Shown here in pieces: positions 33,853 through 53,320 of a DNA stretch of 64,000 bases (position 1 is the stretch's first letter; each line of letters begins with the position of its first letter). Source of the DNA: Streptomyces sp. TN58. GTDB lineage: Bacteria; Actinomycetota; Actinomycetes; Streptomycetales; Streptomycetaceae. The stretch lies in contig NZ_CP018870.1 in assembly GCF_001941845.1 (NCBI RefSeq), forward strand, positions 3,281,501 to 3,345,500, read 5' to 3'. The notes beneath the pieces are model-generated. The model was not told the DNA's origin. It saw nothing but the letters and a program-made list of their open reading frames with translations, and did not search any database. Made by a program: the position numbers and the translations under genes.

Positions 33853-34216
33853 CTGGGAAGCGCCTACTTCCTCGGTGGTCAGGCCCCCGCACTGGGATTG
33901 CGCTCCCGGCGGGGGCCGACGCATGTCAGCGGTGTGTGGTCTGTCGCGCTGAGCGTAGATCAGGCAACCCGCCCCGAAGCCAGCCAAGTTGGGCATATTC
34001 ACTCAAGCGAGTGAGTGTGCGTCACGGGGCGGGAGGGGTGGGGTTTGGTGTGGTGCTTTCTCCCCGTGTCTTGAGTTCTGGGACCGTCCCCGCCACCGGC
34101 GTCCCGTTGCACGGGCGCCGGTCCCGGTCGCCGCCCCCGACCCGCCTTCCTACGATGGGAAGGTCGGCTCGGGGATCAGGACACCGCTCGGGGACGTGGC
34201 TCAGAGGTGATCGCGC
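33853..34216. promoter_or_regulatory. Divergent promoter region of the winged-helix and serine hydrolase genes
   Basis: 364 bases with no gene. A short dyad CACTC-AAGC-GAGTG lies at 34000-34013, near AT-rich GCATATTCACTC. It is a possible operator or part of a promoter; nothing else stands out. Confidence 0.5.
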
Positions 34217-51356: not shown

Positions 51357-51391
51357 AATTACCCCCTCCGCTTTTAGCGGAGGGGGTAATT
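51357..51391 (-). terminator. Terminator of the metM-metO operon
   Basis: 15-bp perfect stem (arms 51357-51371 and 51377-51391) with a TTTTA loop, 28 bases after the stop of the sulfur-carrier gene. Confidence 0.92.
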
Positions 51392-51418: not shown

Positions 51419-51697
51419 TCAGCAGCCGCCCGCGACCGCCGGGATGATCGAGACGCCGGCGCCGTCCGGCGTCACCGCCTCCAGCCCGCCCTCGAAGCGC
51501 ACGTCGTCGTCGTTGACGTAGACGTTCACGAAGCGGCGGAGCTTGCCCTGGTCGTCCAGGACGCGCGCGGCGATGCCCGGGTGGTTCTTCTCCAGGGACT
51601 CGATGACCTCGGCGAGGGTCGCGCCCTCGGCCGGGACCTCGGCCTGACCGCCGGTGTAGGTGCGCAGGATGGTGGGGATGCGGACGTTGACGCTCAT
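51419..51697 (-). CDS. metO: MoaD/ThiS/CysO-like sulfur carrier protein (MetO-type)
   Basis: 92-residue ubiquitin-fold sulfur carrier: VRIPTILRTYTGGQAEVPAEGATLAEVIESL and FVNVYVNDDDVRFEGGLEA are MoaD/CysO signatures. The end AVAGGC places the essential Gly-Gly at 90-91, followed by one extra Cys that would have to be trimmed by a peptidase before thiocarboxylation. It lies 36 bases downstream of the ThrC-like gene and is in its operon. In Streptomyces such a partner donates sulfur for homocysteine formation (MetM/MetO route). A general CysO-like role in cysteine synthesis is the alternative. Confidence 0.8.
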   Translation of the reverse strand: MSVNVRIPTILRTYTGGQAEVPAEGATLAEVIESLEKNHPGIAARVLDDQGKLRRFVNVYVNDDDVRFEGGLEAVTPDGAGVSIIPAVAGGC

Positions 51698-51733
51698 GGC
51701 GCTACTGCCTTTCCGGTAGTGCGGGGAGGGTGG

Positions 51734-53008
51734 TCAGGCCAGGCCGGCGGCGCGGAACGCGTCCAGGCTGGGGCGGATGGTGGCGGTCTGCCCGCTGTCT
51801 GCAGCCACCGCCTCCAGGGTCTTGAGGCCGTCGCCGGTGTTCAGGACGACGGTGGTCAGCGCCGGGTCGAGCTGACCGTTCTCGATGAGCTTCTTCGTCA
51901 CGCCGACGGTCACGCCGCCCGCGGTCTCGGCGAAGATGCCCTCGGTCTGCGCGAGGATCTTGATGGCCTCGACGACCTGCTCGTCGGTCACGTCCTCGAC
52001 GAAGCCGCCGGTGCGTCGCGCGATGTCCAGGACGTACGGGCCGTCCGCCGGGTTGCCGATGGCGAGGGACTTGGCGATGGTGTTCGGCTTCTGCGGGCGG
52101 ACCACGTCGTGCCCGGCCTTGAAGGCGGTCGACACCGGGGAGCAGCCCTCGGCCTGGGCGCCGAAGATCTTGTACGGCTTGTCCTCTACGAGACCGAGCC
52201 TGATCAGCTCCTGCAGACCCTTGTCGATCTTCGTGAGCTGGGAGCCGGACGCGATCGGGATGACGATCTGGTCAGGCAGCTGCCAGCCGAGCTGCTCGCA
52301 GATCTCGTACGCCAGGGTCTTGGAGCCCTCGCCGTAGTACGGGCGCAGGTTGACGTTGACGAAGCCCCAGCCCTCGCCCAGCGGGTCGCCGATGAGCTCG
52401 GAGCAGAAGCGGTTGACGTCGTCGTAGTTGCCCTCGATGCCGACCAGGTCGCCGCCGTACACACCGGCCATGACGACCTTGCCCTGCTCCAGGTCGTGCG
52501 GGATGAACACGCAGGAGCGGAAGCCGGCCCGGGCGGCCGCGGCGCCGACGGCGCCGGCCAGGTTGCCGGTGGAGGAGCAGGACAGGGTGGTGAAGCCGAA
52601 GGCGCGGGCGGCCTCGACGGCGATGGCGACGACGCGGTCCTTGAAGGAGTGCGTCGGGTTGCCGGAGTCGTCCTTGACGTACAGCTTGCCGGTGACGCCC
52701 AGCTCCTTGGCCAGGTTCTCCGCGTCGACGAGCTTGGTGAAGCCGGGGTTCAGGCTGGGCTTGGACGCCACGTCGGCGGGGACGGGCAGCAGCGGCGCGT
52801 AGCGCCAGATGTTGTTCGGGCCGGCCTCGATCGCGGCGCGCAGGGCCGCCGGGTCACCGGTCGGGAGCTCGTAGGCGACTTCCAGCGGCCCGAAGCACTC
52901 GGCGCACGCGAAGATGGGACCGAGCTCGAAGCGGGTACCGCACTCGCGACACGAAAGGCCGGTGGCAGGTCCGAGATCGACAGAGGTGGCGACAGTCTGT
53001 GCAGCCAT
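51734..53008 (-). CDS. metM: Threonine-synthase-like PLP enzyme, probable homocysteine synthase (MetM-type)
   Basis: 424 residues, fold-type II PLP enzyme. PLP Lys123 in NPTHSFKDR, phosphate-binding loop SSTGNLAGAV, and the substrate-binding NYDDVNRF. Residues 20-38 are a zinc-ribbon-like CRECG...CAEC. By sequence it is a threonine synthase, acting on O-phosphohomoserine. However, it is co-transcribed with a sulfur carrier and preceded by a SAM riboswitch, which points to sulfur transfer to give homocysteine. Streptomyces usually have another thrC with hom and thrB. An alternative start is 8 codons upstream, inside the riboswitch P1. Confidence 0.82.
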   Translation of the reverse strand: MAAQTVATSVDLGPATGLSCRECGTRFELGPIFACAECFGPLEVAYELPTGDPAALRAAIEAGPNNIWRYAPLLPVPADVASKPSLNPGFTKLVDAENLAKELGVTGKLYVKDDSGNPTHSFKDRVVAIAVEAARAFGFTTLSCSSTGNLAGAVGAAAARAGFRSCVFIPHDLEQGKVVMAGVYGGDLVGIEGNYDDVNRFCSELIGDPLGEGWGFVNVNLRPYYGEGSKTLAYEICEQLGWQLPDQIVIPIASGSQLTKIDKGLQELIRLGLVEDKPYKIFGAQAEGCSPVSTAFKAGHDVVRPQKPNTIAKSLAIGNPADGPYVLDIARRTGGFVEDVTDEQVVEAIKILAQTEGIFAETAGGVTVGVTKKLIENGQLDPALTTVVLNTGDGLKTLEAVAADSGQTATIRPSLDAFRAAGLA

Positions 53009-53027
53009 GATGGCGAGGCCCTTTCTC

Positions 53028-53181
53028 CTCATCTTCCCCATGGCGCATTTCGCCATGAGACGGAATTGGCACCTTCCCTAGCCGGGGACCTCGTCGACGA
53101 GCGCTGCTGCGCGATCGCGAGAACCGACTGGAGGGTTGCCGGGGCTTCAACGGGCCGTGTCCCTCTGCCCCTCTGGATGAG
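53028..53181 (-). ncRNA. SAM-I riboswitch
   Basis: On the minus strand the conserved core is CTCATCCAGAGGGG...GAGGGA...GGCCCGTTGAAGCC, CGGCAACCCTC, then AAGGTGCCAATTCC. P1 is formed by CTCATC (53181-53176) with GATGAG (53033-53028). P4 is ATGGCG-N5-CGCCAT (53056-53040). The P1 3' strand runs into GAGGAGAAAGG, the only purine-rich ribosome-binding region before the PLP-enzyme start, so SAM binding should hide it and stop translation. No terminator hairpin follows. Confidence 0.93.
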
Positions 53182-53320
53182 CGGTATGGCACCGGCATAC
53201 GCGCTCTGCGGCGCGCCGGTGCGTTTGTACGCGGGGGACCCCGGCATGCGGTGGTCCTTCGCGTTGTTCAAGACTGTAACCGAAGGGGCGGGCGGTTGAG
53301 ACAGCCGTCCGAACCGCGAG

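What the first reader, a model, noticed from the sequence alone, without database searches (positions are those of the whole stretch)
51419..53008. ThrC-like enzyme paired with a sulfur carrier: MetM/MetO homocysteine route
Sequence shows a full-length threonine-synthase-like protein (PLP Lys123, O-phosphohomoserine-type active site) transcribed with a MoaD/CysO-like carrier ending Gly-Gly-Cys, behind a SAM riboswitch. Established knowledge: many Streptomyces lack the canonical transsulfuration/sulfhydrylation step and use a threonine-synthase homologue plus a carrier to convert O-phosphohomoserine to homocysteine. Inference: this operon is that system, and most automatic annotations as thrC are misleading. 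The extra Cys after Gly-Gly implies a processing peptidase (JAMM/Mec-type) elsewhere.
Basis: partly seen in the sequence, partly recalled or inferred. Interest (0 to 1): 0.8.

Follow-up and report, generated by a model that had tools for sequence, protein, structure and literature searches.

The report
Sulfur-carrier route to homocysteine in Streptomyces
Two neighbouring Streptomyces genes, one usually mislabelled threonine synthase and one for a small sulfur-carrying protein, look like the recently published MetM/MetO route to methionine; the only fresh detail is a one-residue cysteine cap on the carrier that comes and goes between the species examined but was never seen as another residue there.

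Summary
On the minus strand, a 424-aa threonine-synthase-like enzyme (PLP lysine K123) is followed after 36 nt by a 92-aa MoaD/CysO-type carrier ending Gly-Gly-Cys, behind a SAM riboswitch. The same 7.59-Mb genome has a separate hom-thrC-thrB cluster, one Prok-JAB protease (beside cysO and cysM) and one rhodanese-bearing MoeZ. It has no convincing MetX, and its one MetA-like gene is divergent and sits in an NRPS cluster. The carrier is found in 246 of 246 same-genus genomes searched, the MetA family in 2 of 246. The riboswitch lies upstream of metM in all 17 relatives tested. This is the MetM/MetO pathway published in 2024, so already known; a cysteine-capped Streptomyces carrier (PtmS3) and its likely protease were reported in 2018.

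One detail I did not find in print: the cap is polymorphic (60 GGC, 78 GG in the 138 of 246 genomes read). The forms differ by one CTG unit at the stop codon, yet no other cap residue was seen, whereas CysO caps vary. A neutral model predicts mostly non-cysteine caps, so the cap's identity appears to be selected.

The parts
51734..53008 (-). metM: threonine-synthase-like fold-type II PLP enzyme, proposed O-phosphohomoserine:MetO-thiocarboxylate homocysteine synthase (424 aa)
   Evidence: separate thrC in genome
52640..52642 (-). codon of the presumed PLP lysine K123 (motif SFKDRV; SFKDRG in the genome's own ThrC)
52895..52951 (-). N-terminal CxxC...CxxC zinc-ribbon-like motif (C20, C23, C35, C38), absent from the canonical ThrC
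51419..51697 (-). metO: MoaD/CysO-type sulfur carrier protein, 92 aa, C-terminus GGC
51422..51424 (-). TGC codon of the C-terminal cysteine cap, directly before the TGA stop
53026..53183 (-). SAM (S-box) riboswitch aptamer in the metM leader; the aptamer ends 17 nt before the metM start codon
   Evidence: relatives
51357..51391 (-). terminator-like hairpin downstream of metO
   Evidence: 2 such sites in the region, 1.0 expected in shuffles

Best explanation
This is the MetM/MetO operon for homocysteine (hence methionine) synthesis. Proposed working: the JAMM protease Mec trims MetO's C-terminal Cys to expose Gly-Gly; the E1-rhodanese MoeZ adenylates and thiocarboxylates it; MetM takes O-phosphohomoserine made by Hom and ThrB, eliminates phosphate on PLP and adds the MetO thiocarboxylate sulfur at the gamma carbon; the product is released as homocysteine, perhaps through a MetO-homocysteine adduct that Mec can also cleave. 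SAM shuts the operon down through the leader riboswitch. Shown here: gene content, synteny, riboswitch, a separate ThrC with Hom and ThrB, one Mec and one MoeZ. Inferred: all chemistry, processing and regulation, from the published MetM/MetO work (known to me through passages of PMC12172450 and recall), PMC6006322 and PMC3227635.
For: Window: metM, metO, SAM riboswitch. Conserved adjacency, 79 of 80 loci. Riboswitch upstream of metM in 11 of 11 Streptomyces loci and 6 of 6 metM loci outside the genus (the own cysO locus L113, also given, had none). With the MetO query the best match is 2.7e-42 or better in 246 of 246 same-genus genomes; the genome's own CysO scores only 7.1e-28. Separate hom-thrC-thrB by profile: Hom and ThrC, ThrB 213.7 bits vs cut-off 168.25. 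One Prok-JAB match; MoeZ at 750.7 bits vs 647. MetX: 22.8 bits at best. Signature SFKDRV in 80 of 80 (window plus 79 Streptomyces loci) and 10 of 10 loci outside, against SFKDRG in ThrC; zinc ribbon in 80 of 80 and 6 of 6 tested outside. PMC12172450 passages: S. albulus MetM is a homocysteine synthase with an upstream SAM riboswitch and neighbouring metO.
Against: The genome carries a divergent MetA-family gene and a CGS-like enzyme at 684 bits, so a second route cannot be excluded. A cyanobacterial relative (51.6% identical to S. albulus MetM, next to a metO-like gene) was assayed as a threonine synthase/deaminase, and its authors argue that it does not act fully as a MetM (PMC12172450), so homology plus neighbourhood does not guarantee function. 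MetM itself was not searched across the 246 genomes, only MetO.
Confidence: 0.92

Rival explanations
1. MetM is simply a second threonine synthase, and the carrier gene is a bystander or serves another pathway.
For: It passes the NCBIfam thrC equivalog cut-off (272 vs 167.1 bits). A cyanobacterial homologue has threonine synthase activity (PMC12172450).
Against: A canonical ThrC (319.8 bits) lies between hom and thrB in this genome. A SAM riboswitch fits methionine, not threonine, control. Only 119 of 344 aligned residues match the genome's own ThrC. The carrier is co-conserved.
Confidence: 0.04
2. Homocysteine in this strain comes mainly from a canonical acyl route: the MetA-like acyltransferase plus the CGS-like enzyme; MetM/MetO is accessory.
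For: PF04204 match of 177.8 bits, over the Pfam cut-off of 27; cystathionine gamma-synthase model NF005871 at 684.4 bits, over its cut-off of 513.
Against: The MetA-like protein is far below the NCBIfam MetA cut-offs (146 vs 460.5 and 139.6 vs 495 bits). It lies in a cluster with a diaminobutyrate transaminase, an aspartate kinase, a lysine/ornithine-type N-monooxygenase, an MFS transporter and an NRPS. The family occurs in 2 of 246 same-genus genomes. Besides the CGS-like gene the only other strong PF01053 match is a cystathionine gamma-lyase (the next are 31.9 bits and less), so no separate metY or metC of that family.
Confidence: 0.05
3. The cysteine cap is neutral: produced by CTG slippage at the stop codon and tolerated because Mec is there to remove it.
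For: GGC-GGC-TGA and GGC-GGC-TGC-TGA differ by one CTG unit; the state changes 12 times on the metM tree; Mec matches in 244 of 246 genomes; CysO caps are present and varied.
Against: The cap codon is TGC in 60 of 60 capped genomes read while the bases after the stop vary freely. Capped branches of the tree carry 9.92 substitutions per fourfold site; at those rates about 49 changes of the codon that alter the residue or make a stop would be expected, none is seen. A neutral model expects 85-100% non-cysteine caps at the fitted rates.
Confidence: 0.25

Closest known systems
MetM/MetO of Streptomyces albulus (Hasebe et al. 2024, AEM e01247-24; paper not held, seen only as cited in PMC12172450)
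   Same: ThrC-like PLP enzyme, neighbouring sulfur-carrier gene, upstream SAM riboswitch, same genus
   Different: Nothing found that sets it apart. The S. albulus sequences, the C-terminal residue of its MetO included, could not be read here.
Mec/CysO/CysM/MoeZ cysteine pathway (Mycobacterium tuberculosis; PMC3227635 passages)
   Same: Carrier thiocarboxylate as sulfur donor to a PLP enzyme with an O-phospho amino acid; MoeZ activation; Mec release step
   Different: O-phosphoserine to cysteine by a CysM-type enzyme; a separate locus in this genome (L113)
PtmS1/PtmS3/PtmS4 of Streptomyces platensis (PMC6006322, section 7 read, other passages seen)
   Same: PtmS3 is a carrier with a single Cys after GG (GG form is residues 1-91), as MetO here; one JAMM and one MoeZ-like ('MoaZ') protein in the genome
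   Different: Studied as the sulfur source of thioplatensimycin; methionine not discussed in the passages seen. That PtmS3 is MetO is my inference.
HcyS/HcyD/HcyF of Wolinella (Krishnamoorthy and Begley 2011; seen only as a reference in PMC5764234, details recalled)
   Same: Protein-thiocarboxylate route to homocysteine with a capped carrier and a JAMM protease (recalled)
   Different: Uses a MetY-type enzyme and O-acetylhomoserine (recalled), not a ThrC-type enzyme and O-phosphohomoserine
Canonical threonine synthase (ThrC)
   Same: Fold-type II PLP enzyme, presumably the same substrate
   Different: In this genome: SFKDRG instead of SFKDRV, no N-terminal zinc ribbon, no carrier gene called beside it

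Membership tests
MetM/MetO homocysteine system | ThrC-like PLP enzyme distinct from the ThrC of the threonine operon | tested here: met
MetM/MetO homocysteine system | Sulfur-carrier gene with C-terminal Gly-Gly directly downstream | tested here: met
MetM/MetO homocysteine system | SAM riboswitch upstream | tested here: met
MetM/MetO homocysteine system | Activating E1 (MoeZ) and O-phosphohomoserine supply (Hom, ThrB) encoded in the genome | tested here: met
   MoeZ and Hom; ThrB
MetM/MetO homocysteine system | Close sequence identity to the characterised S. albulus MetM | not tested
   S. albulus record not at hand; S. noursei locus L101, which I recall as a close relative, is 88% identical
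MetM/MetO homocysteine system | O-phosphohomoserine plus MetO thiocarboxylate gives homocysteine; deletion causes methionine auxotrophy | not testable with these tools
   needs bench work
Canonical threonine synthase (thrC) | Location with hom and thrB | tested here: not met
   That place is taken by another ThrC (L112)
Canonical threonine synthase (thrC) | Score over the NCBIfam thrC equivalog cut-off | tested here: met
   272 vs 167.1 bits; I take this as the model being too broad
Mec/CysO/CysM cysteine system | Carrier beside a CysM-type synthase and a mec gene | tested here: not met
   That set is at L113; no Mec-like match within the held DNA of 80 metM loci

The most novel reading that the evidence does not exclude
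The cysteine cap of MetO is a selected, switchable part of the pathway. MetO is translated with the same carrier-Gly-Gly-Cys end as the CysO-cysteine adduct that Mec hydrolyses, so the cysteine-pathway protease must act before methionine can be made. Lineages switch this dependence on and off by a 3-base CTG repeat change at the stop codon, and in Streptomyces no other cap residue is tolerated.
Probability: 0.25. Interest if true: 0.5.

Novelty: already known. Interest (0 to 1): 0.3.

Why it matters
It supports renaming, as metM and metO, genes annotated as threonine synthase next to a ThiS/MoaD-like gene behind a SAM riboswitch. It also suggests that one JAMM protease and one MoeZ serve both the cysteine and the methionine carriers in Streptomyces. 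The on/off cysteine cap gives a cheap, direct test of what that protease selects for.

Tried and rejected
MetX as an alternative acyltransferase: own genome 22.8 bits at best, all 15 candidates scored. In the genus, 68 of 246 genomes have a match of 240 bits or more (my threshold; counted from the listing, recounted). That is a lower bound, since at most 8 candidates per genome were scored there. No genome, and none of the 14 control genomes, reaches the curated 500 bits, so that cut-off says nothing. A canonical route may therefore exist in some Streptomyces.

MetA: I expected absence and found a divergent member; kept as a rival.

A Mec gene beside metM: no match around the 80 Streptomyces loci, nor in the 10 metM loci outside the genus that were checked.

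Cap as neutral slippage: considered first, then disfavoured by the invariance of the codon. Against my reading: a metO-only tree (264 bases) gives 19 changes against 18-28 in 200 shuffles, so it hardly resolves the history; recombination of metO alleles could inflate the 12 changes on the metM tree; and at gain and loss rates of 8, which fit 11.5 log units worse than the best fit, the neutral model still leaves 62% Cys caps. The branch-collapsing step did not work (node counts unchanged) and was redone: 13 changes at support 70, 17 at support 95 (polytomies counted as hard), and 7 disjoint clades of support 95 or more that hold both states.

Sampling limits: the 138 genomes read for the tail (distinct, the window's own included) are 138 of the 246 searched; 130 of them came from the listed, better-scoring matches, whose query ended in GGC, and 8. 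108 genomes were not read. The neutral model takes metM fourfold sites as neutral and ignores back mutation. The 80 loci were the best 80 of 526.

CysO caps: read in 25 of 29 loci given; in 4 no CysO lay in the fetched stretch.

Other JAMM/JAB Pfam families than PF14464 were not searched. Structure prediction was not run; it would not test the chemistry.

Full report
WHAT IS THERE. The two genes lie on the minus strand: metM 53008-51734 (424 aa, K123 in SFKD) and metO 51697-51419 (92 aa, ending GGC), 36 nt apart. Pfam gives PALP (219 bits) and ThiS (62.7 bits); NCBIfam names metM threonine synthase (272 vs cut-off 167.1). A SAM riboswitch (75.6 bits) occupies 53183-53026. The 3' side of its P1 helix (AGAUGAGGA) runs into the purine-rich stretch before the start codon, so translational control is plausible; this is inference. 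A terminator-like hairpin follows metO (2 such sites in the region, 1.0 expected).

THE REST OF THE GENOME. The window lies in a single 7.59-Mb contig; its nearest named relative is S. virginiae (metM 99%). A canonical ThrC sits in hom-thrC-thrB (ThrB by TIGR00191, 213.7 vs 168.25 bits). The only PF14464 JAMM match is mec, in a cluster with cysO (ending GGSK) and cysM. The ThiF search gave two matches: one is MoeZ with a rhodanese domain (NF005902 750.7 bits; Pfam Rhodanese), the other (71.8 bits) was not identified. Four ThiS-family stretches occur. The cystathionine family has two strong members, CGS-like and CGL-like, plus a cystathionine beta-synthase among the PALP proteins; I take these as reverse transsulfuration (recall). 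MetX is not found. A MetA-family protein is found, but it is divergent (146 bits against the 460.5 needed) and lies with a diaminobutyrate transaminase, an aspartate kinase, a lysine/ornithine-type N-monooxygenase, an MFS transporter and a 1362-aa NRPS with condensation, adenylation, carrier and thioesterase domains.

CONSERVATION. With the MetO query, 246 of 246 same-genus genomes match; the weakest best match is 2.7e-42, well apart from the own CysO at 7.1e-28. MetM itself was not searched across these genomes. Mec matches in 244 of 246; the two without it are assemblies of more than 1000 contigs. The MetA family occurs in 2 of 246. metO follows metM in 79 of 80 loci; in L103 the contig ends. 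In the phylum sample 178 of 296 genomes have a MetO/CysO-like match. Of 23 stretches that I fetched around such matches outside the genus, 10 hold a long MetM match (53-64% identity) with the carrier beside it and no Mec match, and 13 hold Mec beside the carrier, which I take as CysO loci. The riboswitch precedes metM in 11 of 11 Streptomyces loci tested and in 6 of 6 outside. MetM has SFKDRV where both the canonical ThrC and a third ThrC-like paralogue have SFKDRG: 80 of 80 (window plus 79 loci) and 10 of 10 outside. The zinc ribbon is in 80 of 80 and in 6 of 6 outside tested. Among solved structures the nearest are threonine synthases (best E 8.8e-52); the carrier's nearest are 4n6e and the M. 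tuberculosis chain 3dwg (that the latter is CysO is recalled).

THE CYSTEINE CAP. Of 79 named Streptomyces loci, 51 MetO end GGC and 28 GG. Of 138 genomes read from the set of 246, 60 end GGC and 78 GG, none otherwise; the two samples may share species. The two forms differ by one CTG unit at the stop (GGC TGA against GGC TGC TGA). On the metM tree (80 rows) the state changes 12 times; 200 bootstrap trees give 11-15 and 200 shuffles of the labels 16-28; 7 disjoint clades of support 95 or more hold both states. Yet the codon is TGC in 60 of 60 capped genomes, while the bases right after the stop are highly variable. Branches assigned GGC carry 9.92 substitutions per fourfold site. At the fourfold rates a free codon should have seen about 49 changes that alter the residue or make a stop (32.5, 11.2 and 5.3 at its three positions). 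A simple neutral model expects 85-100% of caps to be other than Cys at the fitted rates, and 38% or more even at much faster, badly fitting ones. By contrast, CysO in 25 Streptomyces loci shows nine different caps, never Cys and never absent (4 further loci held no CysO). Outside the genus, the 10 MetM-linked carriers end in GG (5), GGA (1), GGC (1) or longer tails (3). So, in the genomes read, Streptomyces MetO allows 'nothing' or 'Cys', which points to selection on the cap. GG-Cys is chemically the same end as the CysO-cysteine adduct that Mec hydrolyses (PMC3227635 passages); that this explains the restriction is my inference, and the longer tails outside the genus show that it cannot hold for every lineage.

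WHAT IS KNOWN. Hasebe et al. 2024 describe MetM/MetO in S. albulus. The paper is not held; I saw it only as cited in passages of PMC12172450 and otherwise recall its abstract. PMC6006322 (section 7 read in full; passages) describes in S. platensis four carriers, two of them capped (MV and C), one JAMM and one 'MoaZ' homologue. Deleting the JAMM or the MoaZ gene abolishes thioplatensimycin and thioplatencin, and PtmS3 (cap C) works in vitro as its GG form. PtmS3 is very probably MetO (same length, same cap), an inference. JAB proteases in operons with a carrier and cysteine synthase in actinobacteria were noted in 2006 (PMC1779556 passages). I did not find the on/off cap or its codon invariance in print with the searches, which cover only openly licensed papers.

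VERDICT. The cap pattern is a modest, testable addition.

Noticed in passing
L186:6275-16630 (G000:C1 about 3.580-3.591 Mb): A cluster with a lysine/ornithine-type N-monooxygenase, a diaminobutyrate transaminase, a divergent MetA-family acyltransferase, an aspartate kinase, an MFS transporter and a 1362-aa NRPS; the MetA family was otherwise found only in one other (G042) of 246 same-genus genomes.
   Followed up: partly
L116:4814-5785 (-): A third threonine-synthase-like paralogue (323 aa, SFKDRG) that stays below the cut-offs of the threonine synthase models listed for it; role unknown.
   Followed up: no
window 33854-34103 (-): Streptomyces sRNA scr4677 (RF02673), 174.5 bits.
   Followed up: no
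   Followed up: yes
L221, L222, L167: MetO-like carriers outside Streptomyces with tails of 14-15 residues after GG; beside metM in L221 and L222, L167 not checked.
   Followed up: partly
L029 (G000:C1:4835661-4836341): A second, weaker ThiF-family match (71.8 bits) besides MoeZ, not identified.
   Followed up: no
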